Of a DNA stretch of 64,000 nucleotides, positions 10,574 to 25,531 are shown in pieces. Source of the DNA: Comamonas testosteroni (GTDB lineage: Bacteria; Pseudomonadota; Gammaproteobacteria; Burkholderiales; Burkholderiaceae_C). The notes under the pieces were generated by a model. That model made no database searches, was not told where the DNA came from, and saw nothing but the letters and a program-made list of their open reading frames with translations. The position numbers were made by a program, and so were the translations under genes. The stretch lies in NCBI RefSeq assembly GCF_030505195.1, contig NZ_CP129672.1:3382501-3446500 (forward strand). Reading direction: 5' to 3'. The stretch's first letter is position 1, and each line of letters begins with the position of its first letter.

Positions 10574-11326
10574 ATGAGTTGGGATTGGCAGGTGTTCTGT
10601 CAGGACACCATTACCCAAGAGGTCGGGCAGAGTTGTTTTGGCAAGAACGGTGACATCACCTATCTGGACTGGATGCTGTCGGCCTGGGGCTGGACCGTGT
10701 CGGTGGCATTGCTGTCGCTGGTCATCGCTCTGGTGTTGGGCGCAGTCATCGGTACCTTGCGTACCTTGCCCGATCGTCCGTGGATCGTGCGCCTGGGCAA
10801 TGTCTGGGTGGAGTTGTTCCGCAATATTCCGTTGCTGGTCCAGGTGTTCATCTGGTACCACGTGGTTCCGGCCATCTTCCCTGCAATGAAGTCCCTGCCG
10901 GGCTTTGTGCTGGTGGTGTTTGCGATCGGTTTCTTCACCTCGGCGCGTATCGCCGAGCAGGTGCGCTCCGGTATTCAGGCTTTGCCGCGGGGCCAGCGCT
11001 ATGCCGGTATGGCCGTGGGGTTCACAACCTTCCAGACCTACCGCTATGTGCTGTTGCCGATGGCGTTTCGCATCATCATCCCGCCGCTGACCAGCGAGGC
11101 CATGAACGTGTTCAAGAACTCGTCCGTGGCGTTTGCCGTGTCCGTGGCCGAGCTGACCATGTTTGCCATGCAGGCCCAGGAAGAGACTGCTCGCGGCGTC
11201 GAAATTTATATGGCTGTGACAGGTCTGTATGTGATTTCTGCCTTCATCATCAACCGCATCATGGCCTTCATCGAGAAGCGTTCGCGCGTTCCCGGCCTGA
11301 TTGCAGCCAGCGGTGGAGGCCACTGA
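10574..11326 (+). CDS. gltJ: Glutamate/aspartate ABC transporter permease 1
   Basis: Inner-membrane permease of the HisM/GltJ type, 250 aa with about five transmembrane segments. The EAA-type coupling region is visible as SGIQALPRGQRYAGMAVG-type sequence near residues 133-152, and the membrane motif VELFRNIPLLVQVF near residue 80 is typical of amino-acid permeases. The start has an upstream GAAAGAGG. It ends one base before the second permease ATG (TGA-T-ATG), so the two subunits are translationally linked and probably form a heterodimer. Confidence 0.94.
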   Translation: MSWDWQVFCQDTITQEVGQSCFGKNGDITYLDWMLSAWGWTVSVALLSLVIALVLGAVIGTLRTLPDRPWIVRLGNVWVELFRNIPLLVQVFIWYHVVPAIFPAMKSLPGFVLVVFAIGFFTSARIAEQVRSGIQALPRGQRYAGMAVGFTTFQTYRYVLLPMAFRIIIPPLTSEAMNVFKNSSVAFAVSVAELTMFAMQAQEETARGVEIYMAVTGLYVISAFIINRIMAFIEKRSRVPGLIAASGGGH

Positions 11327-11327
11327 T

Positions 11328-11999
11328 ATGAATCTCAACCTTGACTGGTCGTTTTTCTCGCCGGGCCTTTTCAGCAACTATGTGCTCAAAGGCCTGTATT
11401 TCAGTCTCACGCTGACGGTGATTGCCACATTGGGCGGCATCTTCTTTGGCACGCTGCTGGCGCTGATGCGTCTGTCGGGCAAGAAGTGGCTGGACCTGCC
11501 TGCCACCATCTATGTCAACGGCATGCGCTCCATCCCGCTGGTGATGGTGATTCTGTGGTTCTTCCTGCTGATGCCCATGCTTATCGGCAAGCCCATCGGC
11601 GCGGAAACCTCGGCCATCATCACCTTTGTGGCGTTTGAGGCCGCATATTTCTCTGAAATCATGCGCGCCGGCATTCAGTCCATTCCACGTGGTCAGGTGT
11701 TTGCCGGCCAGGCGCTGGGCATGACCTATGGTCAGAACATGCGTCTGGTGGTGCTGCCTCAGGCCTTCCGCAACATGCTGCCCGTGCTGCTGACGCAGAC
11801 CATCATCCTGTTTCAGGACACTTCGCTGGTCTATGCGATCGGCGCCTACGACATGCTCAAGGGCTTCGAGCTGGCGGGCAAGAATGATGGCCGGCCGATT
11901 GAATCCTATCTGGCGGCTGCCGTGACCTATTTTGTGATCTGCTTTGCACTGTCTTGGTTCGTCAAGCGTCTGCACAAGAAGATCGCCATTATTCGATGA
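11328..11999 (+). CDS. gltK: Glutamate/aspartate ABC transporter permease 2
   Basis: Second permease subunit, 223 aa. The start at 11328 follows the gltJ stop by one base and gives MNLNLDWSFF; a further in-frame codon at 11301 would overlap gltJ and is rejected. Family features are YVNGMRSIPLVMVILWF and the coupling loop AGIQSIPRGQVFAGQALG (near residues 118-136). It pairs with gltJ and the gltL ATPase. Repeat family B begins directly after its stop codon, in the gap before gltL. Confidence 0.94.
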   Translation: MNLNLDWSFFSPGLFSNYVLKGLYFSLTLTVIATLGGIFFGTLLALMRLSGKKWLDLPATIYVNGMRSIPLVMVILWFFLLMPMLIGKPIGAETSAIITFVAFEAAYFSEIMRAGIQSIPRGQVFAGQALGMTYGQNMRLVVLPQAFRNMLPVLLTQTIILFQDTSLVYAIGAYDMLKGFELAGKNDGRPIESYLAAAVTYFVICFALSWFVKRLHKKIAIIR

Positions 12000-12001
12000 A
12001 A

Positions 12002-12090
12002 CACCCCCTGAGTCGCTTTGCGCCCTCCCCCTCAAGGGGGACGACGGCCTCGGCTGCGGGGCGGCCCTTGCTGGCCGTCCCTGGCCTGAC
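12002..12090 (+). repeat. Family B GC-rich 3'-end repeat, copy 2
   Basis: Begins a few bases after the gltK stop codon with CACCCCCTGAGTCGCTTTGC, continues with the perfect hairpin TCCCCCT-CA-AGGGGGA (12026-12041) and ends near GCGGGGCGGCCCTTGCTGG. It is homologous to the minus-strand block at 4682-4773. It sits inside the gltK-gltL gap, so the operon tolerates it. Confidence 0.7.
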
Positions 12091-12142
12091 CGAGCCCGTT
12101 GCAGGCGCTGCGATGGATCACTGACAAAAGTCGGAGTGAAAA

Positions 12143-12880
12143 ATGATTGAACTCAAGAACGTTTCCAAGTGGTACGGCAGCTTTCAGGTGCTGTCCGATT
12201 GCTCCACCAATATCAACAAGGGCGAGGTGGTGGTGGTGTGCGGCCCTTCGGGCTCCGGCAAGTCCACGCTGATCAAGACCATCAATGCACTGGAGCCTTT
12301 CCAGAAGGGCGAGATCTTTGTGGACGGCACGGCAGTGCACGATCCCAAGACCAATCTGCCCAAGCTGCGCAGCCGCGTGGGCATGGTGTTCCAGCACTTT
12401 GAGCTGTTCCCCCACCTGTCGGTGACGGAGAACCTGACCATCGCTCAGATGAAGGTGTTGGGCCGCAGTGCAGCCGACGCCAAGACCCGTGGCCTGAAGA
12501 TGCTGGACCGTGTGGGCCTGACCGCTCACAAGGACAAGTTCCCCGGCCAGCTCTCCGGTGGCCAGCAGCAGCGCGTGGCCATTGCGCGCGCTCTGTCGAT
12601 GGATCCCATCGTCATGCTGTTCGACGAACCCACTTCGGCGCTGGATCCTGAAATGGTGGGCGAAGTGCTGGACGTGATGATGGGCCTGGCACATGAAGGC
12701 ATGACCATGATGTGCGTGACCCACGAAATGGGATTTGCGCGCAAGGTGGCCAGCCGTGTGATCTTCATGGACGTGGGCGGCAAGATTCTGGAAGACTGCA
12801 GCAAGGACGAGTTCTTCGGTCATCCCGAAAACCGCCAGCCGCGTACCAAGGAATTCCTCAACAAGATCCTGCAGCATTGA
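12143..12880 (+). CDS. gltL: Glutamate/aspartate ABC transporter ATP-binding protein
   Basis: Cytoplasmic ATPase of the amino-acid importer, 245 aa, the normal GltL/GlnQ length. Walker A is GPSGSGKST (residues 34-42). The Q-loop is in [11 protein letters not shown], the ABC signature is [15 protein letters not shown], Walker B is [13 protein letters not shown] and the switch His lies in CVTHEMGFA. It is the last gene of the operon, separated from gltK by repeat B (143 bp in all), and is followed by a clear terminator. Confidence 0.95.
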
Positions 12881-12900
12881 TGCTGCTGCCCTCTGGGTCC

Positions 12901-12927
12901 AAGGCGCTCCTCGTGAGCGCCTTTTTT
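12901..12927 (+). terminator. Terminator of the gltIJKL operon
   Basis: AGGCGCT-CCTCGTG-AGCGCCT followed by TTTTTT, 21 bp after the gltL stop. Confidence 0.92.
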
Positions 12928-12962
12928 CCTGGTTCGGCCGTGAGAAGGTTTGAATAAAAGAT

Positions 12963-13051
12963 GAGCTGGAATCGCCTGTCAATCAAGAAGTATGGATATG
13001 AAAGTATTCAGATTTATTGACTGGTAAGCGATGACAGCTCCTATTTTTTAA
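12963..13051. repeat. Family A intergenic palindromic repeat, copy 2
   Basis: Left arm GAGCTGGAATCGCCTGTCAA (12963-12982) and right arm ending GCGATGACAGCTCC (13028-13041), followed by TATTTTTTAA. It lies in the convergent gap between gltL and a Bug gene. The central part contains ATTCAGATTT, related to the TCTGAAAT core of other copies. Confidence 0.6.
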
Positions 13052-13092
13052 TGTGAGTCCGACTGCATCAGGCGGGGCCTGGCCGGCGCGCG

Positions 13093-14088
13093 CTAGTCGA
13101 GCTGCACGCCGGTTTCCTTGACCAGCTGGCTCCAGTCGTCCAGGTCCTGGATCAGGGTCTGGGTGAATTGCTGGGGCGTGGTCATCGGCAGGTCCGAGAA
13201 GTTGAGCTCGCGCATGCGCTGGACCAGGGCTGGGTCGCGCAGCGCGCGCAGCACCTGTTCGTTGAGCCGCGCGACGATGGCCGGCGGGGTCTTGGCCGGC
13301 GCGAAGATGCCGTACCACGAGTAGTTCTTGAATGGGTAGCCGGCCTCGGTCATGGAGGGCACCTCGGGCAGGGACGGCAGCCGTCCCGAGCTGCTGTGCG
13401 CCAGCGCCTTCACGCGGCCGGCCTTGACCAGTTCCACGGTGGAGGAGGTGTCGCCGAAGCCCGCATCCACCTGCCCGCCCATGATGTCCTGCACGCAGGG
13501 GCTGGAGCCTTTGTAGGGGATGTGGGTCATGGTGATGCCGGCCTGCTTCTTCAGGCTTTCCATGGTCAGGTGGCCGCCCGAGCCCAGGCCCCAGGAGCAG
13601 TAGTTGAGCGTGTCGGGATGGGTCTTGGCATAGCTCACGAATTCCTGCAGCGTGTTGACGGGCAGATCCTTTCTGACCAGCAGCAGGTTGCCGCCGCGCC
13701 CGATCTGGGCGATGGGGGCGAAGTCCTTGAGCGGGTCGTAGGGCAGCTTGCGGTAGAGGCTGGGGTTGACTGCCATGGTGGCCGCGTAGGTGAACAGCAG
13801 GCGGTAGCCGTCGGCCGGGCCCTTGGCCACGGAATCGACGCCGATGATGCCGTTGGCGCCGGGGCGGTTGTCCACCACGAAGGGCTGCTTCATGGCCTTG
13901 CCCAGCGCGTCGGTGAACAGGCGGGCAATGGTGTCGGTGCCGCCGGCCGCCGCCGTGGGCACGATCAGGGCCACGGGCCGGCTGGGGTAGCCGGCGGTGT
14001 CTTGCGCATGGGCGGTGCCGGAGGTGGCGGAGGCCAGCGCTGCGGCGAGGGCCAGGCAGCGGCGCAGGTGGTGCGGTTGAGTGTGCAT
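13093..14088 (-). CDS. Bug/TctC-family tripartite tricarboxylate receptor, first of two in the cluster
   Basis: Exported solute-binding protein, 331 aa with a signal peptide ending near AHAQ (residue 29). It carries the Bug signature YPSRPVALIVPTAAAGGTDTIARL, the ligand-loop sequence NRPGANGIIGVDSVAKGPADGYRLL, and the second motif HIPYKGSSPCVQDIMGGQ. The start is supported by CAGGAG eight bases before the ATG. It is the last gene of the porin-to-Bug cluster (13093-22544), 35 bp after the metallo-hydrolase gene. No TctA/TctB membrane partner lies in the window, so it either works with a distant permease or is a sensory or orphan receptor, both common for Bug proteins in Burkholderiales. Confidence 0.9.
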   Translation of the reverse strand: MHTQPHHLRRCLALAAALASATSGTAHAQDTAGYPSRPVALIVPTAAAGGTDTIARLFTDALGKAMKQPFVVDNRPGANGIIGVDSVAKGPADGYRLLFTYAATMAVNPSLYRKLPYDPLKDFAPIAQIGRGGNLLLVRKDLPVNTLQEFVSYAKTHPDTLNYCSWGLGSGGHLTMESLKKQAGITMTHIPYKGSSPCVQDIMGGQVDAGFGDTSSTVELVKAGRVKALAHSSSGRLPSLPEVPSMTEAGYPFKNYSWYGIFAPAKTPPAIVARLNEQVLRALRDPALVQRMRELNFSDLPMTTPQQFTQTLIQDLDDWSQLVKETGVQLD

Positions 14089-14123
14089 GGATGTCTCCTG
14101 GATGGGACTGGCCAGCGGGCGGG

Positions 14124-15377
14124 CTAGCGGATGCCGAAGCGGCCCTGTGTGCCTTGCTCGATCATGTCGGCGCTGACCTTGTAGAGATTGCGCGATACAT
14201 AGCTGGCGACCTGGGCCGCGCGCTCGCGCAGCCAGGCGGCCTTGAGGGCACGCGCCTGGGTGAGTTCGGGTGCGTCGCCATGGGCGGTGGCCAGCAGGTC
14301 GATGACGTGCAGGGCCAGTTGCCACTGGCCGGCGTCGGCCAGGGCCTGGGCGCTGGCGATGACGGCGGGCTTGTCGGTGATGGCCCGGGCCACGGCGGCG
14401 CCCACGGCTTCGGGCGGCTCGGGGTGCAGGGTGGTGGGATTGCGGTCCCACCAGCCGTTTTCCGAGCGGTAGATGTCGCGCACGATGTAGCTGGGGTCGC
14501 CATAGGTGGGCTTCATCCAGGGCATGCCGAACAGCTCCTCGGGGTAGTGCATCCGGGCCAGCACCTGCTGCTCGCCCAGGCCCTGGTTCATGAGGCTGAC
14601 CACTTCGGCGCGCAGCCAGCGCAGCGCGCGGGCCGTGTGGGTGAGCACCTTCTGCACTTCGGCCTCGCCCTCGATCACAGGGCCGAATTCGCGCACGGCG
14701 ATGCGCGGATCGAGCGCGGCCAGGGCTTCGAGCGTGCCGGCCCAGCGCACGGTGTCGCGCAGCGTGCGAAACGGCGTTCCGATGTTGGGAATGGAGTCCA
14801 GCAGCGCTGCGCCGCCGTAGATCACGCGCTGCGCGGGGCTCCACAGGGCGATGGCGTCGTCGGTCTCGGACGGTGCCCACAGCAGTTCGATGCGCTGCTC
14901 GCCGCTGCCTATGACCAGGCACTGCTCAAAGGTCTCGGTGGGCTCGTGCATGGCCAGCCGACGCTCGAAGAAGCCGGGCGAGCGGTTGAACTGCACTTCG
15001 GCCATGCGGTGCTGCAGTGCCTGCGTCTCGCGGTAGCGTGCGTGGCGGCGCAGCACGTTGCGGTGGGCGATGAGGCGAGGCGCGGGCTCGCCGCGCTGGC
15101 GCGCATGCTCAAACCACTGGGGCACGCCGGCGTTGTAGCCGATGTGGCCGTGGCTGTAGCACAGCGCATGCACGGGGGCGTCGCTGAGCGCGCGCAGGCT
15201 GTCGATCATGCCCTGGGTGACGGAGCCGCCGGGGCCGGCGTCCACGACCACCAGGCCTGCGTCCGTCTCGGCCGCGAAGGACTGGCCCTGGCCGCGCAGT
15301 ATGTGCAGGCCCGGGGCCACAGTTTCGCTGCCCGTGCCCACGAGCAGGAAGGGCTTGTCGTCGTCTTTGCTGTCCAT
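14124..15377 (-). CDS. Alkylsulfatase-like metallo-beta-lactamase-fold protein with incomplete metal motif
   Basis: 417 aa; N-terminal metallo-beta-lactamase fold followed by a helical region resembling the alkylsulfatase dimerisation domain (MPWMKPTYGDPSYIVRDIY and ENGWWDRNPTTLHP, compare SdsA1/BDS1). The expected zinc motif H-x-H-x-D-H is seen as H76-G-H78-I-G80-Y81: the first two His remain, while Asp and the third His are replaced by Gly and Tyr. Sulfatase activity is therefore doubtful, or the metal site has changed. The ATG at 15377 has AGGAG eight bases upstream and sits one base after the preceding stop; a second ATG at 15395 lacks such a site. It is translationally coupled to the DUF1254 gene. 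No signal peptide. Confidence 0.82.
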   Translation of the reverse strand: MDSKDDDKPFLLVGTGSETVAPGLHILRGQGQSFAAETDAGLVVVDAGPGGSVTQGMIDSLRALSDAPVHALCYSHGHIGYNAGVPQWFEHARQRGEPAPRLIAHRNVLRRHARYRETQALQHRMAEVQFNRSPGFFERRLAMHEPTETFEQCLVIGSGEQRIELLWAPSETDDAIALWSPAQRVIYGGAALLDSIPNIGTPFRTLRDTVRWAGTLEALAALDPRIAVREFGPVIEGEAEVQKVLTHTARALRWLRAEVVSLMNQGLGEQQVLARMHYPEELFGMPWMKPTYGDPSYIVRDIYRSENGWWDRNPTTLHPEPPEAVGAAVARAITDKPAVIASAQALADAGQWQLALHVIDLLATAHGDAPELTQARALKAAWLRERAAQVASYVSRNLYKVSADMIEQGTQGRFGIR

Positions 15378-15378
15378 G

Positions 15379-16734
15379 TCAGGACTCCTGTTCATCGTTC
15401 AGGCGCTGCAGCGGCGGCAGTGCGTAGCGCCCGTTCAGCATGTCGGTGCGCGGCAGATAGGCGCGCAGGCAGAGGTAGAAGCGGCCTTCGGGCGCGGGCA
15501 GCCAGTTGGCGCGCGCGGCTTCACTGTGTGGCGCGGCGTGCTGTATGTGCAGGGTCAGGCCGCCGTCGGCGTCGTGCTGCATGCCGGTGCTGCGGTCGCC
15601 TATGGCGTAGCGGTCCAGCGGGTTGTCCACCAGCATGTAGCTGCGCGCGTCGTACAGGGTGATGGACCAGAACGCGTCCACGGGCGGCAGGGCCCCGGGC
15701 GCAAAGCGAAGGCGGTAGCGCGCGCCGCCGTCCAGAGGCTGGCCCCGGGCGTCGGTCCAGGCCATGGGGTAGATGGCTTCGCGCCCGTCCAGCATGCCTA
15801 TGTACTTGAGCGCCACCTGGGCGCGGGTGGCGTAGTCGTCACCGAAGCTGTCCATCACCAGCGGTGGCACGATCCAGCCCGAGGCCTGGCTCGTGCCGTA
15901 CTGTGCGCTGCGCAACCGCGGCAGCACGGCGTCCAGCGCCTGCTGCAATGCCCGGACCTGGGCGTCATCGAGCTCGGTGCAGCCGTTGCCCAGGCCCACG
16001 GCCGCAAAGCGCTCCACCAGTTCGCGCTGCGCAGCGGGCGGTGGATTCTCCCGCAGCGCGGCGTTGACCTGGGCGGCAAAGTGGTCTGCCGTGGCCGGGG
16101 CCTGCGGGTCGCAGTCCGGCGCAAAGGCCCGGGGCACGGGCGCGACTGCCGCCTGGCCGGCCAGCCAGTCGGCCAGCGGGGCCATGCTGAAGCCGTCCTG
16201 CAGCGCATGCGCGGCCGCCAGGTCCCGGGGGCCGTCCACCAGGATGCGGCCAATGACCCATAGCCAGCGCGTGGGCGCCTGGATGTGGGCGCCGGGCGCA
16301 TCGAAGCCCGCGGGCAGCGCGCCGCTCCAGCCTGGCGGCGTGACCAGGAAGGAGCGCGCCTGGGTACCGGTCAGGCGCGGGCCTATGTGGGCGAAGGGAT
16401 TGGTGTAGAAGTCCAGCAGGCCCAGCACGTAGTAACGCCCCGCGGTGTCGGGCACGTCGATGACCAGCGGTCCTGCGCCCAGGTCCAGCCAGGCATTGGT
16501 GTAGAGCGTGTCGTTGTTGGGTGTGACCACGCGGCTGGTGCCGGCGCGCAGCAGCTGGCGCGCGTGGGTGAAGAGGTTGCACCAGCGCATGCCTTCGGGC
16601 GCGGCCTGGCCCGCCTCGGTGCGCCGGGGCGAGGTGGCAGCGCGCATGCGGCGCATCTCGTAGAGCGGGTAGGCCCAGGTCACGGCTTGCTCGGCCAGGG
16701 CCTGCTGTGCGGCGGCCGTTGTGGTGGCCGTCAT
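15379..16734 (-). CDS. DUF1254/DUF1214 domain protein A
   Basis: 451 aa, two domains. The N-terminal DUF1254 spans about residues 15-160, with VTPNNDTLYTNAWLDL and the following YYVLGLLDFYTNPF strand. The C-terminal DUF1214 spans about 330-445, with FWSITLYDARSYMLVDNPLDRYAIGD-type sequence and NWLPAPEGRFYLCLRAY. The biochemical role of these domains is unknown. Many relatives are exported, but this one has no signal peptide and is probably cytoplasmic. Its ATG overlaps the stop of the next DUF1254 gene by four bases (ATGA), and the pair share domain order, so they are an ancient tandem duplication kept together. The first in-frame ATG is used. Confidence 0.85.
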   Translation of the reverse strand: MTATTTAAAQQALAEQAVTWAYPLYEMRRMRAATSPRRTEAGQAAPEGMRWCNLFTHARQLLRAGTSRVVTPNNDTLYTNAWLDLGAGPLVIDVPDTAGRYYVLGLLDFYTNPFAHIGPRLTGTQARSFLVTPPGWSGALPAGFDAPGAHIQAPTRWLWVIGRILVDGPRDLAAAHALQDGFSMAPLADWLAGQAAVAPVPRAFAPDCDPQAPATADHFAAQVNAALRENPPPAAQRELVERFAAVGLGNGCTELDDAQVRALQQALDAVLPRLRSAQYGTSQASGWIVPPLVMDSFGDDYATRAQVALKYIGMLDGREAIYPMAWTDARGQPLDGGARYRLRFAPGALPPVDAFWSITLYDARSYMLVDNPLDRYAIGDRSTGMQHDADGGLTLHIQHAAPHSEAARANWLPAPEGRFYLCLRAYLPRTDMLNGRYALPPLQRLNDEQES

Positions 16735-18119
16735 GCGTGCACCGCCTGTGCCTGCAGGGCGGGAATGCGCCAGCTCTGCACGCCGTCGTGCGGGTAGTAC
16801 ATGCGCAGTATCAGATAGAAGCGCCCGGCGGGCGAGGGAAGCCAGTTGGCTGCATTGGCGGGGCGCTCGTGGTCGATCTGTATCTCCAGGCTGCCGTCGG
16901 CGCCGAACTGAAGGTCTGGCGTGCGGTCGCCGATGGCGTGGCGGCGGATGTCGTTGGGGTAGAGAAAGCGGTCGCTGTCATACAGCGTCACGGACCAGAA
17001 GGCATCGGCCGGCGGCAGGTCGCCCGCTTCGAATCGCATCACATAGCGCTGCTGGCCGTTGAGCGGCTCGAGATCGGCGTCGTAGTGCGAGGCGGAGTAG
17101 ATGGCCTCGGTGGTGGCCAGCGCGCCCAGGCCCAGGTAGGCGGTGCGGGCGCGGATCAGGAAGTGGCTGCCGTAGCGGCCGGTATTGGTCGTCATGGTCC
17201 ACGGCCTGGGACGGCGGTTGCTGCCCATGGCCGCCACGGTCTGCACGCCGTCGGCAAAGCCTTCGATGAGGCCGGCGCGCGTGGGCTCGTCCAGTGCCTC
17301 CCAGGAAAAAGGCACGCCAGGCACCAGGCCGGCCTGGCCCAGCCAGGCGACCAGGCCGCGGTCCTCGATGCGGCCAGGCGCCTCGGCCAGCGCTTGGCAG
17401 AGATTGGTGAAAAAGCGCGGCGCCACCTGCTGCGCGGGCTCTCCGTTCTCGAAGGCTGCGGCCATGGCGTCCACGGGCTCGCCGCACCAGTGCGCGATGG
17501 CGGCGGGGCGACCCTGGAGCACGGTGCCTGGCGCGGGCTCCAGACGTATCTCCGACTGCAGTGCGCGCGCTGCGGGCCAGTCGCTCTCGTCGCCCGCGAG
17601 GATGCGGCCTATCAGCCAGACCAGGTGGGTGGGGCAGTGCACCGCGCGCAGATGGGACATCGATGGCGGCACCTGGCCGCCGGGGCCGAGCAGGACCACG
17701 GTCTCGCCTTCGGGATTGCAGTTGCGCGGACCCAGGTTCTCGAAGTTCTCGGTATAGGCGTCGTACAGCGGCAGCACGAAGTAGCGCTCCGGATGGCGGG
17801 CCGAGGACGGAATGGTCAGCAGCATGGGGCCGCCTTCCAGGTTCAGCCAGGCCATGGAATACAGCAGGTCGTTGGCCGGAGTGACCACGTCGCGATCCTC
17901 GTGGGTGGAAGGGCGCGGCGCATGGTGCAGCGTGTTCATGGGCGCGCGCACATCCGAGCCGGCCGAGCTGCCGGGGCGCAGCCGAGCCTGCTCGGCGGTC
18001 TGCAGGGCGCAGGTGCGGTAGGTCTCGGTGAGCGGGTAGCCGTAGACGAAGGCGGCCTGGCCTATGGAGCGGGCCAGGGCCTGGCGCGTCTGCTGCAGGG
18101 TCGTGGTGGACTGGGTCAT
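16731..18119 (-). CDS. DUF1254/DUF1214 domain protein B
   Basis: 462 aa paralogue of the protein encoded just downstream. Matching blocks are VTPANDLLYSMAWLNL (DUF1254), FWSVTLYDSDRFLYPNDIRRHAIGD and NWLPSPAGRFYLILRMYYP (DUF1214). The two proteins are clearly diverged, so both copies may be needed, perhaps as a heteromer. No signal peptide. The start is the ATG with AAAGG upstream; 56 bp separate it from the Bug gene before it. Function unknown; the setting between two solute receptors and an acyl-CoA synthetase suggests a step in degradation of an imported compound. Confidence 0.85.
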   Translation of the reverse strand: MTQSTTTLQQTRQALARSIGQAAFVYGYPLTETYRTCALQTAEQARLRPGSSAGSDVRAPMNTLHHAPRPSTHEDRDVVTPANDLLYSMAWLNLEGGPMLLTIPSSARHPERYFVLPLYDAYTENFENLGPRNCNPEGETVVLLGPGGQVPPSMSHLRAVHCPTHLVWLIGRILAGDESDWPAARALQSEIRLEPAPGTVLQGRPAAIAHWCGEPVDAMAAAFENGEPAQQVAPRFFTNLCQALAEAPGRIEDRGLVAWLGQAGLVPGVPFSWEALDEPTRAGLIEGFADGVQTVAAMGSNRRPRPWTMTTNTGRYGSHFLIRARTAYLGLGALATTEAIYSASHYDADLEPLNGQQRYVMRFEAGDLPPADAFWSVTLYDSDRFLYPNDIRRHAIGDRTPDLQFGADGSLEIQIDHERPANAANWLPSPAGRFYLILRMYYPHDGVQSWRIPALQAQAVHA

Positions 18120-18175
18120 GGAATCTACCTTTGCAAAAAGGAACAGGAAGGCGTTCGGGAAAAGGGGGCAGGGCT

Positions 18176-19288
18176 TCAGTTCGGCTGCACGCCGGTGGAC
18201 TGGGTCAGCGCAATGGCGACGGGCAGGTAGGACTGGTAGTCGCTGGCGGCCTGGGCGGGCGTGTTGCCTATGGGGTCGGCCCCCATTTCCTGCAGGCGGC
18301 GCAGCATCTCGGGCTGTCGGACCACCACGGCCACCTCGCGGCCTATGCGCTCGACGATGGCGTCGGGCGTCTTGGCCGGAGCCATCAGCGAGGTGGGTGC
18401 CATGAAGGTGTAGACGTTGTCCTTGAAGCCCTGTTCGGCAAAGGTGGGGACGTCGGGCAGGGCGGTGGTGCGGCTGGTGCCTGGCACGGCCAGGGCGCGC
18501 AGCCGGCCGGACTCGATATAGGGCTTGAGCGTGGAGATGGAGGCCGAGGTCATCTGGATCATGCCGCTGATGAGGTCGGAGACCATGGGGCTTTCGCCCT
18601 TGTAGGCGGCGTGCAGCACCTTGACGCCGTACTTGCGCTCCATGAAGGCCTGTATCTGGTGCGGCTGCGTGCCCGCGCCCCAGGAGCCCATTGCGTAGTC
18701 TCCGGGCGCCTTGCGCACCAGCTCGATCAGCTCGGCAAAGGTCTTGGCAGGCACGGAAGAGTGCACGGCCATGACGGTGCGCTGGCCAGCCACGTCCGAG
18801 ACCATGCGCAGGTCGGTGCGCGGGTCGTAGGGCAGCTTCTTGTACAGCACCAGGTTGGCGGCGATGGGGCCGGGCACGGTCAGCAGCAGGGTGTAGCCGT
18901 CCGCGGCGCTCTTGACCACGTAGTCCGTGCCAATGATGCCGCCGGCGCCGCTGCGGTTTTCCACGATGATGGGTTGGCCCAGGCGTTTGGACAGGCCGTC
19001 GCCCAGGGTGCGCGCGAGGATGTCGGAGGAGCCGCCTGCCGCGAACTGCACGATGATGCGCACGGGCCGGCTGGGGTAGCTGCTCTGGGCGTGCGCGGCG
19101 GCCGGAGTCAGGGCGAATACGGGAGCGAGTGCGGGAGCCAGGCCCGCCAGATGCCGCAGGCAGCTGCGCCGGGACAGGGCTGTGTAGTCGGTGCTGGAGT
19201 CGGCTGCGCAGCTGCCTGCAGGCAGGCCCGGCATGGCGCCGTCGTTGTGGCCGCCAGCGGCCGGGGCTTGGGTGTGATGGGTCTTCAT
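18176..19288 (-). CDS. Bug/TctC-family tripartite tricarboxylate receptor, second of the cluster
   Basis: Solute receptor of 370 aa. It has an unusually long N-terminus (about 68 residues before the mature start at AHAQSSYPSRP) containing the Tat-like motif LSRRSCLRHL, so export by Tat is possible. A shorter start at the Met 19 residues in is also possible. The body has YPSRPVRIIVQFAAGGSSDILAR, NRSGAGGIIGTDYV and HAAYKGESPMVSDLISG. It lies between the acyl-CoA synthetase (40 bp) and DUF1254-B. Two different Bug proteins in one operon may recognise substrate and product or two related acids. Confidence 0.9.
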   Translation of the reverse strand: MKTHHTQAPAAGGHNDGAMPGLPAGSCAADSSTDYTALSRRSCLRHLAGLAPALAPVFALTPAAAHAQSSYPSRPVRIIVQFAAGGSSDILARTLGDGLSKRLGQPIIVENRSGAGGIIGTDYVVKSAADGYTLLLTVPGPIAANLVLYKKLPYDPRTDLRMVSDVAGQRTVMAVHSSVPAKTFAELIELVRKAPGDYAMGSWGAGTQPHQIQAFMERKYGVKVLHAAYKGESPMVSDLISGMIQMTSASISTLKPYIESGRLRALAVPGTSRTTALPDVPTFAEQGFKDNVYTFMAPTSLMAPAKTPDAIVERIGREVAVVVRQPEMLRRLQEMGADPIGNTPAQAASDYQSYLPVAIALTQSTGVQPN

Positions 19289-19328
19289 GCGAATCCTTGG
19301 GTTGGGGCAGAGGGCATGCGGGCCGCGC

Positions 19329-21467
19329 TCAGCGGGCTGGGACTGTGCAGTGGTCGGCGCCTATCACCAGCGCATCGACCGCCACGCAGCCGCCCTGCTC
19401 CCGGGGCAGGGCGATCAGCGGGTTGATCTCGGCGCTGGACAGGGTGTCGCCGCAGCGCTGGGCAAAGTCGGCCAGGGCCAGCAGCGCATCGGCCAGCGCC
19501 TGCAGGTCTGCGGGCGGCTTGCCGCGCGCGCCGGCCAGGATGGGAAAGGTGCGCAGCTCCTGCACCATGGCCAGGGCATCGTCCCGGGTGATGGGCAGTG
19601 CGCGCAGCGACACGTCGCGCAGGATTTCGACGTGGATGCCGCCCAGGCCGAACATCAGCACCGGGCCGAACACCGGATCGCGGTGCACTCCCGCAATGCA
19701 TTCGACGCCGCCGTGCACCATGCGGGCGGCCAGCGCTCCGTCCAACTGCGCTGTGGGCCGTGCCTGGCGCGCACTGGCGAGAATGCGCTCGAAGGCGGCG
19801 CCCGCATCCATGGCCGTGCGCAGGTTCAGCGCCACGCCGCCGACCTCGGACTTGTGCGCGATGTCGGCGCTGGCCACCTTCAGCGCAATGGTTCCGCCCA
19901 GGGCCTGCACGGCCTGCGCCGCCTGCTGCTGGGTGCGCACCAATTGGTGGGGCACCACGGGCATGCCGGCCTCGGCCAGCAGTTCCATGCTGCGGGCTTC
20001 GGACAGGCTGCCCGGGGGCAGCTGCAGCGCGGACTGGGCCGGGAAGGCCGGCGGCAGCGGCGCTGCGCGCTGCGCATCGGCCAGCGAGGCCAGGGCGCCT
20101 ATGCAGCGTATGGCCGCGCTGGGGTCCGAGAACACCAGGCAGCCCAGGGCTTCCATCTCGGCGCGGCGCGCGTCGGAGCACAGCGTGCAGATAGCCAGCA
20201 GCGTGTCGGGGTGGGCGGCGCGCAGCTTTTCCACCAGGGAGCGCAGCACGGCCCAGAACGCGTCGGACAGGCCGCCCGCGGCGAAAAAGCCCAGCCAGCT
20301 CGCGAAGTTCCGATCCCGCATCATCAGCTCGGCGCTGCGCTCGAGCAGGGTGACATCGTTGGTAACCTGGCCCGTGATGTCCACGGGGTTGCGCGGCGCG
20401 GCAAACGGCACCCATTCGAGCAACTGGCGCTGGGCGGCCTCGGACAGGGGCTGCGCGTCGAGACCGGCGGCGCTGGCGTCGTCGGCCATCATGGCACCCA
20501 CGCCGCCCGAGACGGTGAGCAGGCCCAGGGAGTGGTTGCGCGGAATCGGCGCGATGGAGGCGCTGGCCGCCAGCGCGAAGAAGTCGCTGATGGTGTGCGC
20601 GCGCAGCACGCCGTACTGGCGGAACACGGCGTCATAGACGGCATCGTTGCCGGCCAGCGATGCCGTATGCGAAGCGGCCGCGGCCGCGCCCAGCTCGCTG
20701 GTGCCCACCTTGAACATGATCACGGGCTTGCCGTGCTCGCGCGCCAGTGCCAGGGCCGCGCGCAGGCGCTCGCCGTCGCGGCAGCCCTCCATGTAGGCCA
20801 TGATGACATCGGTCTCCGGATCGCGGGCCAGCCAGGCCAGGCCGTCGGCCAGCTGCACGTCGGCTTCGTTGCCCGTGGTCGCCCACAGGGACAGGCCCAG
20901 ACCGCGCTCGCGCGCCATGCTGTAGGCATAGGCTCCAAAGGCCCCGGACTGGCTGATCAGGCCTATGCGCCCGGGCTTGACGCGGCCCGCATTGGGGGCG
21001 GGCGAGAAGGTTGCATAGGTCTGGTGGCCGGGGCGCATGAAGCCCAGGCAATTGGGGCCTATGAGGCGTACGCCGGCTGCGCGGGCGCGTTCCTGCAGGG
21101 CCTGCTGGGCCGCCGCGCCTTCGGCGCCGGTCTCGGCAAAGCCCGACGAGAACAGCACCATGGAGCGCACGCGGGCCGCGGCCGCGTCCTCGAGCACTGC
21201 GGCCACATGAGCCTGGGGCACGGCCACGATGGCCAGATCCACGGGCTCGCGGATGTCGGTCAGCCGCGCGTGGGCCGGCAGGCCCTGCACCGTGGCCGCG
21301 CGCGGGTTCACGGCACGCAGGCGGCCCGTGTAGCCGAAGCGCAGCAGGTAGTCGAGCGGAATGCCGCCTATGCGCTGCGGCGAGTCGGTGGCGCCGACGA
21401 CGGCGATGGAGCGTGGCGAGAACAGGGCGTCCAGCCCGGCGAAATCGAAGTCCATGGATGGCTGCAT
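19329..21467 (-). CDS. NDP-forming acyl-CoA synthetase (acetate-CoA ligase alpha/beta fusion type)
   Basis: Activates a carboxylic acid to its CoA thioester with ATP, forming ADP through a phosphohistidine. 712 aa in the order CoA-binding Rossmann domain (FSPRSIAVVGATDSPQRIGG, residues 16-35), succinyl-CoA ligase-like domain with the phosphorylated His (ASHTASLAGND, H267), then a C-terminal ATP-grasp domain with ALKVASADIAHKSEVGGVALNL. The order and length match single-chain NDP-forming acetyl/acyl-CoA synthetases. It lies 12 bp after the porin gene and should supply the CoA-activation step of the cluster. Substrate not identifiable. Confidence 0.9.
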   Translation of the reverse strand: MQPSMDFDFAGLDALFSPRSIAVVGATDSPQRIGGIPLDYLLRFGYTGRLRAVNPRAATVQGLPAHARLTDIREPVDLAIVAVPQAHVAAVLEDAAAARVRSMVLFSSGFAETGAEGAAAQQALQERARAAGVRLIGPNCLGFMRPGHQTYATFSPAPNAGRVKPGRIGLISQSGAFGAYAYSMARERGLGLSLWATTGNEADVQLADGLAWLARDPETDVIMAYMEGCRDGERLRAALALAREHGKPVIMFKVGTSELGAAAAASHTASLAGNDAVYDAVFRQYGVLRAHTISDFFALAASASIAPIPRNHSLGLLTVSGGVGAMMADDASAAGLDAQPLSEAAQRQLLEWVPFAAPRNPVDITGQVTNDVTLLERSAELMMRDRNFASWLGFFAAGGLSDAFWAVLRSLVEKLRAAHPDTLLAICTLCSDARRAEMEALGCLVFSDPSAAIRCIGALASLADAQRAAPLPPAFPAQSALQLPPGSLSEARSMELLAEAGMPVVPHQLVRTQQQAAQAVQALGGTIALKVASADIAHKSEVGGVALNLRTAMDAGAAFERILASARQARPTAQLDGALAARMVHGGVECIAGVHRDPVFGPVLMFGLGGIHVEILRDVSLRALPITRDDALAMVQELRTFPILAGARGKPPADLQALADALLALADFAQRCGDTLSSAEINPLIALPREQGGCVAVDALVIGADHCTVPAR

Positions 21468-21479
21468 AAAGTTCCTCTG

Positions 21480-22544
21480 TCAGAAGTTGTGGCGCACGCC
21501 CAGTGCCAGCGAACGCACGCCGTTGCCGCTGTCGGCCACCACGGGCACGTTGGCGATGGATACCGAGGAGCCGCCCGCGTTGCTCAGTTGCAGCCAGCGC
21601 GCGTACAGCGTGGTGCGCTTGCTCAGGTAGTGGTCGTAGCCCAGGGTCCAGGCGGTCTGGCGGCGCTCGGATCCGTCGACCTTGCGGCGTGCCACCGATA
21701 GCAGCACCTTGGATGTGAAGGTTGCGCTCCACTCCGTGCCCAGCTGCAGGAGGCGGGCGTCGCCCGTACCCGCTTGGTTGATGCTGGCGCGGCTGTAGCT
21801 GCCGCTCAGGCGCAGCTTGGGCATGGCCTGCCAGCTGGTCACCAGCGTCTGGTAGCGGCTGGTGCGCGGCGTGGCCACGGGCGCTGCCGCGCTGCCCTCT
21901 GTGGAGTTCTGGACGCTGTAGGCCACGAAGAAGGGCTTCTGCCTCCAGCCCACGGTGCCGCCGTAGAGCCGGGCGTTGTTGCTGTTGGGCGAGGGCACCT
22001 CGCCGAAGGAGTAGGCCGGGTCCAGCACCAAGGGCTGGCCCTCGGGAAGGCGGTAGCGCACGAGATTGCTGCCGCGCGCGGCAAAGGCCTTCAGGTTCGG
22101 CTGGCCGTCAGTGCTATAGCCGAGGTTGGTGGGAGAGAACAGCGAATTCATGCCGAACGGATCGGCGCGGAACAGGGCGCTGAACATGGGCGTGTACATA
22201 CGGCCCATCTGGATGTGGCCCCAGGGCGCGCTCAGGCCGATGAAGGACTGGCGGGTGAAGGCCAGTGAAGGGCCGGGAATGGTGCCCATGCCGGTGTCCG
22301 GAGTGACGCCGGCCTCGAGCATGAAGCGGGCGCGCCAGCCGCCTCCCAGCTCCTCGACGCCGCGAAAGCCTATGCGCGAGGCGGCGCTGCCGCCGTCCTC
22401 CAGGCGTGTCAGCCGCGTGCCCCCCGATCGGGCGCTGTTGAGATGGACGTCCATGACGCCGAAGATCTCCACGCTGCTCTGCGCCCAGGCGGCACTGCCG
22501 AATATTGCCCAGCCTGTGGCGACCAGCCATTGCTTGTGCTTCAC
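21480..22544 (-). CDS. Gram-negative general porin
   Basis: Outer-membrane trimeric porin of the betaproteobacterial Porin_4/OmpC-like type, 354 aa, with a signal peptide (residues 1-21, ending AWAQ) and the diagnostic C-terminal phenylalanine after alternating hydrophobic residues (LALGVRHNF). The N-terminus SSVEIFGVMDVHLN and the internal SRIGFRGVEELGGGWRARF block are family hallmarks. It is the first gene of the minus-strand cluster and probably its dedicated entry pore. The promoter lies in the 165-bp gap shared with a Crp/Fnr-family gene, which holds a perfect palindrome at 22635. Confidence 0.92.
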   Translation of the reverse strand: MKHKQWLVATGWAIFGSAAWAQSSVEIFGVMDVHLNSARSGGTRLTRLEDGGSAASRIGFRGVEELGGGWRARFMLEAGVTPDTGMGTIPGPSLAFTRQSFIGLSAPWGHIQMGRMYTPMFSALFRADPFGMNSLFSPTNLGYSTDGQPNLKAFAARGSNLVRYRLPEGQPLVLDPAYSFGEVPSPNSNNARLYGGTVGWRQKPFFVAYSVQNSTEGSAAAPVATPRTSRYQTLVTSWQAMPKLRLSGSYSRASINQAGTGDARLLQLGTEWSATFTSKVLLSVARRKVDGSERRQTAWTLGYDHYLSKRTTLYARWLQLSNAGGSSVSIANVPVVADSGNGVRSLALGVRHNF

Positions 22545-22634
22545 GATGTGTCTCCTGTGTTTGTGCTTTGCACGGGCGCACAGCCTTGCGCTGCGGTGTG
22601 ACTGCTACTATCCGAACCAGTGCGGTTGGCACTC

Positions 22635-22650
22635 TGTCAACCCTTTGACA
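22635..22650. promoter_or_regulatory. Perfect palindrome between porin operon and Crp/Fnr gene
   Basis: TGTCAA-CCCT-TTGACA, arms of 6 bp with a 4-bp spacer, centred about 67 bp upstream of the regulator ATG and 98 bp upstream of the porin ATG. Size and symmetry fit a Crp/Fnr-family dimer, and the adjacent gene encodes such a protein. Inference from position. Confidence 0.55.
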
Positions 22651-22709
22651 ATTGGCGGCACTCAAGCCCGGGACTAACCCGGAGCCTGTTTTCCCGCACA
22701 CACAGGTCC

Positions 22710-23429
22710 ATGCCTCGCAAACACCACCCTGAAGCCGGTTCCGTGGCGCTGATACGGCGTGCCCTGAGGCTGTGCCCGCTGATGGGGCACTGGCCGGATG
22801 ACGTGCTGGACGAAGTGGTGGCCGTGGCGCGGCTGAGGCGCTATGACAAGCGAACGCCCCTCATGGTCGGCGAGCGATCGCGCCGCGAGGTGCTGGTGGT
22901 GGCTTCGGGGCGTCTGGCGGTGGAGGGCGTGGATGCAGCGGGCGTGCGCTTCGTGCTGTCGCTGCACGGCCCCGGAGAGATCGTGAGCCTGGTGCGCATG
23001 CTGGGCAACATCCGCTTCGTCTATCACTTCGTGGTGCAGGAGGGCACGGTGCTCGTGCACCTGCCGGGCGGGGCGTTCATGGCCGTGCTGGATGCGCATC
23101 CGGCGCTGTGGCGCGATGTCTGCATGCTGGTGCTGGAGCGCCTGCACGAGCAGATCGCCACCCAGCAGCGCCGCGCCCTGGGCGATACCGCCAACCATGT
23201 GGCCGATGCGCTGGCGCGGCTGGCGCTGATCCACGGCAAGCCCATCGAAGGCGGCCAGGCCGTGAGCCTGCGAATCTCGCAGGGCGATCTTGCGGCCATG
23301 CTGGCGGTCTCGCGCCAGACCGTGAACAAGGAGTTGCGCACGCTGGAGCAGATGGGCGTGATCAATGCGGCCTATGGGCGCGTGACCATCCGCGACCTCG
23401 AAGCCCTGCGCCAGGCGGGCGGCGGCTGA
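22710..23429 (+). CDS. Crp/Fnr-family transcriptional regulator
   Basis: 239 aa with an N-terminal cyclic-nucleotide-binding-type beta-roll (about residues 25-140) and a C-terminal winged helix. The recognition region ISQGDLAAMLAVSRQTVNKELRTLEQMG lies near residues 188-215. No N-terminal Cys cluster for an Fe-S centre is visible, so it is not a typical FNR oxygen sensor. The first ATG consistent with the domain is at 22710; a longer reading frame starting at 22620 would run through the intergenic palindrome. It is divergent from the porin/Bug/DUF1254 cluster and is its most likely regulator. It converges on the arginase gene. Confidence 0.85.
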   Translation: MPRKHHPEAGSVALIRRALRLCPLMGHWPDDVLDEVVAVARLRRYDKRTPLMVGERSRREVLVVASGRLAVEGVDAAGVRFVLSLHGPGEIVSLVRMLGNIRFVYHFVVQEGTVLVHLPGGAFMAVLDAHPALWRDVCMLVLERLHEQIATQQRRALGDTANHVADALARLALIHGKPIEGGQAVSLRISQGDLAAMLAVSRQTVNKELRTLEQMGVINAAYGRVTIRDLEALRQAGGG

Positions 23430-23457
23430 TCCGCCTGTGGCACGTGTGGTGCCGGCC

Positions 23458-24411
23458 TCAGCGCGGCGCTGCTTGTGGCGCGGGGCGCATCAGCGTGCTC
23501 TGGCCGAACAGGCTTTGCACCAGATCCACCACCAGCTCCGCCGTCTGGTTGCGCAGGTCCAGCGCCGGGTTGAGCTCCACAATGTCCAGCGAGGCAAGAC
23601 GGCCGGTGTCGGCAATCATTTCCATGCACAGCTGGGCCTCGCGGTAGGTGGGGCCGCCGCGTACCGGCGTGCCGGTGCCGGGAGCAATGTCGGGGTCCAG
23701 AAAGTCCACGTCGAAGCTCAGATGCAGGTGGATGTCCCTGTCGTTGCGTCCCAGCAAGGTGAGCAGTGCGCGGCGCATCACTTCACGCATGCCCAGCTCG
23801 TCAATGGCCCGCATGTCGTAGACCTCCAGCCCCAGCTCTCGGATCATGTGCTTTTCGCTCTCGTCCACGCTGCGCAGGCCGATCTGACAGAACGATGAGG
23901 CGGGCAGAGCGGGAGTCGTGCCCGACAGCGAGGCCAGCTCCGTCGGCCCCAGTCCGCAGAGGCTTGACACCGGCATGCCGTGCAGATTGCCCGTGGGCGA
24001 GCTTTCGGGGGTGTTGCAATCCGAGTGGGCATCGAGCCAGAGCACGCGCAGCTGCTTGCCCGTGGCGCGGCAATGGCGGGCCACGGCGCTGATGGAGCCT
24101 GTGGCAAGCGTATGGTCGCCACCCAGCAGTATGGGCAGCCGGTTTTGCTGCAGCACCTGCAGTACCGCGTCATGGGCGATCCGGTTCCAGCTCAGGCATT
24201 CGGCCAGATTGCGCAGACCCTGGGCATCGCGCGCGCCACGCGGGTTGGTGGGGCCGCTCAGATTGCCCAGATCGCTGACCTGCACGCCCAGCCGTTCAAG
24301 GGCTGGACCGAGCTGGGCCACGCGCAGGGCATCGGGTCCCATGGCCGCGCCAAGGCGTGAGGCACCGATATCGGTGGGCAGACCGATCAGTGTGGACGAT
24401 GTGTATGCCAT
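23458..24411 (-). CDS. rocF: Arginase
   Basis: Mn-dependent ureohydrolase converting arginine to ornithine and urea, 317 aa. Metal-binding motifs are complete: [31 protein letters not shown] and [22 protein letters not shown]. The ATG at 24411 is chosen because the family starts with a short strand like [15 protein letters not shown] precedes it, and an upstream in-frame codon at 24447 would overlap the cyclodeaminase gene. Placed 13 bp after the ornithine cyclodeaminase gene, it completes a two-step arginine to proline route. Arginase is preferred over agmatinase because of length, the NLHG motif and the neighbour. Confidence 0.88.
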
Positions 24412-24424
24412 GAGCCGCTCCGCT

Positions 24425-25531
24425 TCAGGCCGTCTTAAGGGCCGCAAGATGGATGATCTGGGGGGGCGATGCCTGTCTCACCATGGCAAACAGATCCTTG
24501 GGGTCGGCGAGCTCCGGCACCAGCTCGATCTGAGACAGCAGGCCCGCGCCTTGCGCCAGACTGTGCATGGTGCGCAGCGCCGAGTAGTCCTCCAGTGCGA
24601 AGCCCACGGAGTCGAACAAGGTGATCTGGGCGGCCGATGTCCGGCCCGGCGCCAGCTTCTGCAGCACGCGCCACAGCTCGGTCACGGCGAAGTCGGCAGG
24701 CATTTGCTGCAGCTCGCCCTCGACGCGCGTTTGCGGCTCGTACTCGACAAAGACCTGTGCACGTTGCAGGGCGCTGGCATCGAACTCTGTCTTGCCGGGG
24801 CAGTCTCCGCCCACTGCATTGATATGCATGCCGGGCTCCAGCAAATGCCCGGGAATGATGGTGGCGTGGGTCTTGTCGGCGGTGACGGTGGTCACGATGT
24901 CCGTGCCGGCCACGGCGTCCCGCACGCTGGTGCAGACGATGGCCGTGGCGCAAAAGTCGGGCAGGAACGGCTGCAGGTTGCGCAGCAGCTTTTGCGAGGC
25001 TGCAGGGTCGATGTCGAACAGGCGCAGCTCGCTCACGCCCAGCAACTCCATGAAGGCCAGCGCCTGAAATTCACTTTGCGAGCCATTGCCTATCAGCGCC
25101 ATGCTGCGGTTGCTGGTGCGCGCCAGATGACGCGCGGCCATGGCGGATGTGGCGGCGGTGCGCAAGGCCGTGGTCAGCGTCAGCTCGCTGACAAAGCGCG
25201 GCATGCCGGTGGCGACATCGGCCAGCGCGCCGAAGGCCATCACAGTGGGCAGTCCCAGGCGCGGATTGTGCGGGTGGCCGTTGACGTATTTGAAGGCGTA
25301 GTCCCGCGCATCGGCCACCGGCATCAGCTCGATCACGCCGCTGGCGGAATGGGCGGCCGTACGCGCGCTTTTGTCGAAGTCCTGCCAGCGGCCGAAGTCG
25401 GCCTCCAGGGCTTGGCTGATCAGGCGCAGCACCTGGGGGATGCCGATGCGCGCTACCAGCCGGGCTGCATCGCTGGCGCTGAGAAAGTCGGTCCGGAATG
25501 GTGTCCGGGCCAGAGCTTGAGGAACAGACAT
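24425..25531 (-). CDS. Ornithine cyclodeaminase
   Basis: NAD-dependent conversion of L-ornithine to L-proline and ammonia, 368 aa, the length of the bacterial enzyme (mu-crystallin superfamily). Visible features are the substrate-site stretch [17 protein letters not shown], the Rossmann segment [18 protein letters not shown] (near residues 140-158) and [14 protein letters not shown] with the catalytic Asp. It is first of an operon with arginase, so arginine is the expected source. The start is the ATG at 25531, which has an AGGAGG-like site upstream. No Lrp-type regulator lies nearby. Confidence 0.92.

What the first reader, a model, noticed from the sequence alone, without database searches (positions are those of the whole stretch)
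13093..22709. Seven-gene porin/Bug/DUF1254/acyl-CoA synthetase cluster with a divergent Crp/Fnr regulator
One minus-strand run encodes a porin, NDP-forming acyl-CoA synthetase, Bug receptor, two DUF1254/DUF1214 paralogues, an alkylsulfatase-like protein and a second Bug receptor, with overlaps or gaps of 4 to 56 bp. The divergent gene encodes a Crp/Fnr regulator and the gap has a perfect palindrome. The parts suggest entry, binding, modification and CoA activation of one class of acid, but DUF1254/DUF1214 have no assigned chemistry, and no membrane permease is present. I know of no described pathway with this layout.
Basis: partly seen in the sequence, partly recalled or inferred. Interest (0 to 1): 0.85.

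Follow-up and report, generated by a model that had tools for sequence, protein, structure and literature searches.

The report
Acid-uptake operon with remodelled sulfatase relative
A conserved block of seven soil-bacterium genes, opposite what looks like its own dedicated regulator, resembles a pathway that takes up and activates an unidentified organic acid; it contains a sulfatase-like protein that has lost much of its metal site and two proteins of a family whose job is not known, so it gives a handle on what those proteins do.

Summary
In a Comamonas testosteroni-like genome, seven minus-strand genes (porin, NDP-forming acyl-CoA synthetase, Bug, two DUF1254/DUF1214 proteins, alkylsulfatase-like protein, Bug) lie opposite a Crp/Fnr gene. 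All eight genes recur together in 15 other loci (frames split in two), with differing flanks: a module. The palindrome TGTCAA-N4-TTGACA (22635-22650) is exact in 16 of 18 gaps examined, two mismatches in the other 2, and single in the 6.08-Mb genome, so probably a dedicated operator. New: the "alkylsulfatase" is not a canonical type III alkylsulfatase. Four metal-ligand positions are replaced (Asp to Gly, His to Tyr, bridging Glu to Ala/Pro, His to Phe); His-x-His and one Glu remain; the SCP2-like domain is absent. HxHxGY occurs in 117 of 117 and 118 of 118 long homologues listed, and the gene has the lowest dN/dS of the eight in two comparisons. DUF1254 genes lie near alkylsulfatase-family genes more often than uniform placement predicts (13 of 45 within 5 kb; 0.14 expected). 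Best reading: a locally controlled operon for uptake, modification and CoA activation of a carboxylic acid. Substrate and middle chemistry remain unknown; the missing permease is ordinary.

The parts
22710..23429 (+). Crp/Fnr-family regulator, divergent; recognition helix SRQT[V/I]NK conserved in orthologues (TRQT in L071)
   Evidence: Pfam HTH_Crp_2, cNMP_binding; helix columns 0.87 against 0.67 over the whole protein in 18 orthologues; only 2 Cys
22635..22650 (.). candidate operator TGTCAA-CCCT-TTGACA, 59 bp before the Crp gene and 90 bp before the porin start
   Evidence: exact arms in 16 of 18 gaps, two mismatches in the other 2; one site in the 6.08-Mb genome
21480..22544 (-). outer-membrane porin
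   Evidence: Porin_4, E 4.9e-40
19329..21467 (-). NDP-forming acyl-CoA synthetase, single chain, His267 in ASHTASLAG
   Evidence: Pfam; His aligned with that of solved 8wzu and 9y43
18176..19288 (-). Bug/TctC periplasmic solute-binding protein A
   Evidence: TctC; best solved matches 2dvz and terephthalate-binding proteins 8hka, 8hk9
16731..18119 (-). DUF1254/DUF1214 (VPA0735-like) paralogue a
   Evidence: of residues conserved in b and in the other family members, only Y102 and L342 differ in a
15379..16734 (-). DUF1254/DUF1214 (VPA0735-like) paralogue b; 4-bp overlap with a
14124..15395 (-). metallo-beta-lactamase-fold protein with alkylsulfatase dimerisation domain, HxHxGY type: keeps H82, H84, E177; G86, Y87, A196, F237 at metal-ligand positions; no SCP2-like domain
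13093..14088 (-). Bug/TctC periplasmic solute-binding protein B
   Evidence: TctC (scanned as 13093-14067); best solved matches 2dvz and BugD 2f5x

Best explanation
The eight genes are one locally controlled catabolic module for an organic acid. The porin admits it, the two Bug proteins bind it (or it and a congener) in the periplasm, a permease encoded elsewhere brings it in, the two DUF1254/DUF1214 proteins and the sulfatase-like protein (no signal sequence seen by eye, so probably cytoplasmic) change it, and the NDP-forming synthetase makes the acyl-CoA for beta-oxidation-type breakdown. The divergent Crp/Fnr protein controls both directions through the single palindrome. The sulfatase-like protein is not a canonical two-zinc alkylsulfatase: one metal site is replaced by Gly, Tyr and Phe with the bridging Glu lost, leaving 2 His + 1 Glu that could hold one metal; a changed activity is more likely than decay. 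Shown by computation: gene set, conservation, palindrome, ligand replacement, purifying selection. Inferred: single transcript, regulation, cytoplasmic location, order of steps. Unknown: the acid and the chemistry of the three middle proteins.
For: Set and order conserved in 12 of the 33 loci, all eight genes in 3 more, with several different flanks. Palindrome: 16 of 18 exact, 2 of 18 with two mismatches, one site in the genome; recognition helix conserved although the regulator is 40-58% identical in the more distant loci. Spacings -17 to +56 bp. The synthetase keeps the active-site His. In Cupriavidus campinensis the homologues sit near two acyl-CoA dehydrogenases, an enoyl-CoA hydratase, a CoA-transferase III, a thiolase and an AMP-forming ligase; in C. 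metallidurans CH34 near a thiolase, an acyl-CoA dehydrogenase and an AMP-forming ligase. HxHxGY in 117 of 117 and 118 of 118 listed long homologues, on one side of a tree branch (99/97); lowest dN/dS of the eight in both comparisons made, 0.13 and 0.15. Cupriavidus necator N-1 pBB2 carries synthetase + 3 Bug + two such proteins with no DUF1254 gene in the stretch, so this association does not depend on DUF1254.
Against: No transcript, growth or biochemical data. No sigma-70-like promoter was found in 12800-23500 (0 found, 0.7 expected), and terminator-like patterns (6 found, 3.7 expected) include three on the coding strand inside DUF1254a. No beta-oxidation gene is in the window cluster. In Cupriavidus sp. 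LEh25 (L020) and C. campinensis (L075) the sulfatase-like gene is on the other strand from the DUF1254 pair, and in G082 (L072) 6.8 kb away, and 17 of 33 loci are arranged otherwise: the parts are separable. By identity the sulfatase-like protein is the best conserved in 11 of 17 loci, DUF1254a in the other 6. Metal binding by the remaining His-His-Glu is not shown; the matching site is the one that SdsAP loses more easily (passage of PMC5426288).
Confidence: 0.6

Rival explanations
1. The sulfatase-like protein is a pseudoenzyme: a non-catalytic binding, scaffolding or regulatory subunit of the DUF1254/DUF1214 proteins or of the synthetase.
For: Four metal-ligand positions replaced; SCP2-like domain absent; the remaining site corresponds to the labile zinc site and lacks the bridging Glu; the tandem pair of such proteins in C. 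necator N-1 would suit a hetero-oligomer.
Against: H82, H84 and E177 are invariant in 49 of 49 aligned rows, together with G86, Y87 and F237; dN/dS 0.13 and 0.15.
Confidence: 0.28
2. The operon degrades a sulfate ester: the protein still cleaves a sulfate (or similar) ester with one metal, and the released alcohol is processed to an acid and to the CoA ester.
For: DUF1254 genes lie within 5 kb of alkylsulfatase-family genes in 13 of 45 cases against 0.14 expected; some of those partners carry the canonical HxHxDH (G173, G228, G131 and the second locus of this genome); a PF00884 sulfatase lies near a DUF1254 pair in L072; a full SdsA-type gene lies on the other strand after the pair in Limnohabitans L036.
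Against: The window's protein lacks the two-zinc site and the SCP2-like domain; no alcohol or aldehyde dehydrogenase among the eight genes; 7 of the 13 cases are the same inherited cluster, so they are not independent; 32 of 45 have no DUF1254 within 5 kb.
Confidence: 0.15
3. The genes are neighbours with separate roles (for example the Bugs as sensors) and not one pathway.
For: Bug genes are so common (112 matches in the genome) that some will adjoin any operon; rearranged versions exist.
Against: Fixed order in several genera with different flanks, short spacings, one palindrome.
Confidence: 0.08

Closest known systems
Type III alkylsulfatases SdsA1, Pisa1, SdsAP
   Different: Asp, second His, bridging Glu and last His of the metal sites replaced; no SCP2-like C-terminal domain; no signal sequence seen by eye, while four putative alkylsulfatases of SDS degraders have one (passages of PMC6107682)
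Persulfide dioxygenase / ETHE1
   Same: Metallo-beta-lactamase fold (passage of PMC12856154) with one iron held by 2 His + 1 Asp (passages of PMC6060420): a one-metal centre in this fold has a precedent
   Different: There the ligands are H57, H113 and D130 (A. caldus numbering); here they would be two His of one HxH motif and a Glu. Analogy only, no membership claimed
VPA0735/VPA0106 family (DUF1254/DUF1214)
   Different: I found no function for the solved members; here two paralogues are adjacent in a Bug/acyl-CoA synthetase cluster
ADP-forming acyl-CoA synthetases (4-hydroxybutyrate--CoA ligase 8wzu, 3-hydroxypropionate--CoA ligase 9y43; DMSP lyase 7cm9)
   Same: Aligned over nearly the whole length (8wzu, 7cm9) or in two pieces with swapped domain order (9y43), active-site His aligned in all three
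   Different: Far below the NCBIfam equivalog cut-offs (370 against 1300 bits for the best), so the substrate cannot be transferred
C. necator N-1 pBB2 cluster (synthetase, 3 Bug, two HxHxGY proteins, alpha/beta hydrolase, IclR)
   Same: Synthetase 53% identical, same receptor class, same unusual sulfatase-like type
   Different: No DUF1254 gene in the stretch; two sulfatase-like genes in tandem; IclR instead of Crp/Fnr

Membership tests
Type III alkylsulfatase | Metallo-beta-lactamase domain followed by alkylsulfatase dimerisation domain | tested here: met
Type III alkylsulfatase | HxHxDH plus Glu, bridging Glu and final His that hold two zinc ions | tested here: not met
   H82-x-H84-x-G86-Y87, E177 kept, A196, F237; ligands of SdsAP from passages of PMC5426288. 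F237 opposite His in the Pisa1 and MAFFT alignments; the SdsA1 alignment puts that His 3 columns away across a gap
Type III alkylsulfatase | SCP2-like C-terminal domain | tested here: not met
   423 aa, no PF14864 match, whereas Limnohabitans L036 has it
Type III alkylsulfatase | Hydrolysis of alkyl sulfates | not testable with these tools
   needs purified protein
NDP-forming acyl-CoA synthetase | CoA-binding, succinyl-CoA-ligase-like and ATP-grasp domains in one chain | tested here: met
NDP-forming acyl-CoA synthetase | active-site His that is phosphorylated | tested here: met
   H267 aligned with the His of SHT in 8wzu and 9y43; its role as phosphohistidine is recalled
VPA0735-like DUF1254/DUF1214 | both domains in order and the VPA0735 fold | tested here: met
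   (paralogue b modelled; a by sequence only)
Bug/TctC receptor | TctC domain | tested here: met
   signal sequence judged by eye only
Tripartite tricarboxylate transporter | TctA and TctB encoded with the receptor | tested here: not met
   the genome's two TctA matches lie at C1:1651501 and C1:1238914, outside the window; TctB not searched
Crp/Fnr regulator | cNMP-type sensor domain plus Crp helix-turn-helix | tested here: met
Crp/Fnr regulator, FNR iron-sulfur subtype | four cluster-binding Cys (recalled) | tested here: not met
   only Cys22 and Cys138

The most novel reading that the evidence does not exclude
The HxHxGY group is a new activity of the metallo-beta-lactamase fold that uses one metal held by His, His and Glu in place of the two-zinc alkylsulfatase centre, and it works in one pathway with the paired DUF1254/DUF1214 proteins, so that this operon would give the DUF1254/DUF1214 family its first assigned reaction.
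Probability: 0.3. Interest if true: 0.75.

Novelty: new variant of a known kind. Interest (0 to 1): 0.5.

Why it matters
DUF1254 proteins occur in 49 of 250 sampled genomes of the window's family and 12 of 120 of its order, and some have solved structures, but I found no assigned function. Here they sit in a small, conserved cluster with enzymes whose general role is clear, so removing one gene and growing on a panel of acids could assign a reaction. Where databases name members of the sulfatase-like group, names such as 'alkyl sulfatase' or 'uncharacterized sulfatase' appear, although the metal site has been replaced; that label is probably misleading for the group.

Tried and rejected
Rejected: that the sulfatase-like protein is a decayed gene (lowest dN/dS of the eight in both comparisons; 120 invariant columns in 49 rows that are 67-97% identical to it). 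Rejected: that one DUF1254 paralogue has lost the family's conserved residues. Of residues conserved in b and in the other family members only Y102 and L342 differ in a, and of those conserved in a and the others only R67 and V158 (besides gap columns) differ in b; at N73 and T76 of the NNDT stretch a has Ala and Leu, but other members vary there too. Rejected: missing permease as an anomaly.

Led nowhere: papers. DUF1254/DUF1214 gave 6 papers; I saw passages of 2 (PMC6710368; PMC6299218, where a protein group with DUF252 and DUF1254 domains near Argonaute genes is called putative HNH-type nucleases) and of the other 4 the listing only. PF and VPA names gave 6; passages seen of PMC4634964, PMC2744874 and PMC10734457, listing only for the other 3; PMC4634964 predicts a glycosyl-hydrolase-like jelly roll in Malassezia from a model. 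A combined Comamonas search gave 0; steroid/DUF1302/DUF1329 127 papers, 15 listed, none opened; dimerisation-domain names 4, one opened for passages; Bug/synthetase 1, passage only; locus tags of Variovorax homologues 0; pseudoenzyme search 2, listing only.

Limits of the counts: 117 and 118 are the homologues longer than 380 and 370 aa among the best 120 of 803 and the best 120 of 358; no sequence is identical between the lists. P0081 has GHGH for SHGH and still HxHxGY. For the final Phe, EFG was matched in 117 of 117 and in 102 of 118, with 3 EWG and 13 not matched by the pattern; SET[DE]D in 106 of 118, SETDD in 113 of 117. The tree report warns that long branches of two canonical groups meet; its root is a midpoint. 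The co-location test uses uniform placement, ignores contig ends and counts related genomes apart; 26 of the 71 matches were left out because their genomes have no DUF1254, and 8 matches under the cut-off were dropped. The partner in G046 was not resolved.
Full report
What is there. The window lies at C1:3382501-3446500 of a 6.08-Mb genome. The nearest named relatives found are Comamonas testosteroni ATCC 11996 and JL40 (92-98% protein identity over the eight genes). Seven minus-strand genes run from 22544 to 13093: porin, NDP-forming acyl-CoA synthetase, Bug A, DUF1254/DUF1214 a and b, a metallo-beta-lactamase protein with an alkylsulfatase dimerisation domain, and Bug B; a Crp/Fnr gene starts at 22710 on the other strand. 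Spacings are 12, 40, 56, -4, -17 and 35 bp.

Conservation. Of 33 loci found with DUF1254b in the species-representative genomes, 12 hold all eight genes in this order (L004-L008, L010-L013, L015, L017, L019, the frames being split in L005 and L017), 2 lack only the porin (L009, L016), 2 are cut by contig ends (L014, L018), and 17 are arranged otherwise. The genes beyond the cluster differ: the three Comamonas loci L004-L006 share the window's right flank (gene families f30-f36), six Variovorax loci share another (f8, f9, f17-f21; Xenophilus L010 has part of it), L068 and L069 share a third, and L009, L015, L016, L017 and L071 show none of these (the gene calls there are crude). A set that stays together while its surroundings change is a functional module.

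Regulation. The gap has a perfect 6-4-6 palindrome, TGTCAA-CCCT-TTGACA, at 22635-22650. In the 18 gaps examined (window included) it is exact in 16, with seven different spacers, and in the two Xenophilus loci (L010, L015) it has two mismatches in one arm. The chance of an exact site in 200 bp is about 1e-5 if bases are random, though the loci are related. The own genome holds exactly one such site. The regulators are only 40-58% identical outside the closest Comamonas loci, but the recognition helix is nearly invariant: mean column conservation 0.87 against 0.67 for the whole protein. A dedicated regulator acting on one site is the simplest reading; binding is not shown. The regulator has two Cys only, so it is not an iron-sulfur FNR (the four-Cys rule is recalled). 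No sigma-70-like promoter was found, and three terminator-like patterns lie on the coding strand inside DUF1254a, within the noise of such scans.

Other arrangements. Cupriavidus necator N-1 pBB2 has the synthetase, three Bug genes, two tandem HxHxGY proteins, an alpha/beta hydrolase and IclR, and no DUF1254 in the stretch. C. metallidurans CH34 has sulfatase-like, Bug B and a DUF1254 gene in a row, near a thiolase, an AMP-forming ligase and an acyl-CoA dehydrogenase, and a separate synthetase-Bug-DUF1254-DUF1254-Bug cluster; C. campinensis has porin, synthetase, DUF1254 pair and Bugs on one strand and sulfatase-like plus Bug on the other, with two acyl-CoA dehydrogenases, an enoyl-CoA hydratase, a CoA-transferase III, a thiolase and an AMP-forming ligase close by. 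Limnohabitans 2KL-51 has acyl-CoA dehydrogenases, synthetase, DUF1254 pair, AMP-forming ligase and, on the other strand, a complete SdsA-type gene. These neighbours say 'acyl-CoA breakdown', sometimes with a sulfate ester upstream.

Mechanism. Porin, Bug receptors, permease from elsewhere (112 Bug matches but 2 TctA in the genome), middle chemistry by the DUF1254 pair and the sulfatase-like protein, then CoA activation by the synthetase, whose His267 aligns with the active-site His of solved ADP-forming ligases. The substrate cannot be read from the sequence: the synthetase scores 370 bits against a 1300-bit cut-off for the best named family, and the Bugs match several different solved receptors about equally. 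The three middle proteins show no signal sequence by eye, whereas the second-locus DUF1254 and sulfatase-like proteins appear to have one; no predictor was run.

Verdict. The system is a new variant of a familiar kind (porin + Bug + acyl-CoA synthetase catabolic cluster; that this kind is familiar is recalled) with two unsolved parts. The strongest new point is the metal-site replacement in the sulfatase-like group. No paper with this layout came up in the searches made, in a library of open-licence papers only, of whose listed papers few were opened.

Noticed in passing
L067:6690-11105 (own genome C1:341690-346105): A second DUF1254 + sulfatase-like pair in the same genome, preceded by DUF1329; here the sulfatase-like protein keeps the canonical THFHADH motif and both proteins appear, by eye, to have signal sequences. 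In an unnamed relative (L088) the same pair lies near DUF1302, DUF1329, an MMPL protein and acyl-CoA genes.
   Followed up: partly
L074:10562-13224 (C. necator N-1 pBB2): Two HxHxGY sulfatase-like genes in tandem; several listed homologues seem to come in pairs from one contig, judged by equal contig lengths, which suggests a hetero-oligomer.
   Followed up: partly
L072:11344-18597: A PF00884 (formylglycine-type) sulfatase lies upstream of a DUF1254 pair in an unnamed relative.
   Followed up: no
L005:10001-11323 and L017:5868-13055: Frames of the DUF1254b gene (L005) and of synthetase, DUF1254a and sulfatase-like genes (L017) are split, either sequencing errors or broken copies.
   Followed up: no
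window 10574-12880 and 23458-25531: Neighbours outside the cluster: what looks like an amino-acid ABC transporter (plus strand) and an arginase-like plus ornithine-cyclodeaminase-like pair (minus strand); named by eye from the translations, not searched.
   Followed up: no
Bradyrhizobium diazoefficiens bll2664 (paper PMC6710368): A DUF1254 gene stands in the table of genes changed in a mutant of the Crp/Fnr-type regulator NnrR (value -2.3; passage), another possible link of this family to Crp/Fnr control.
   Followed up: no
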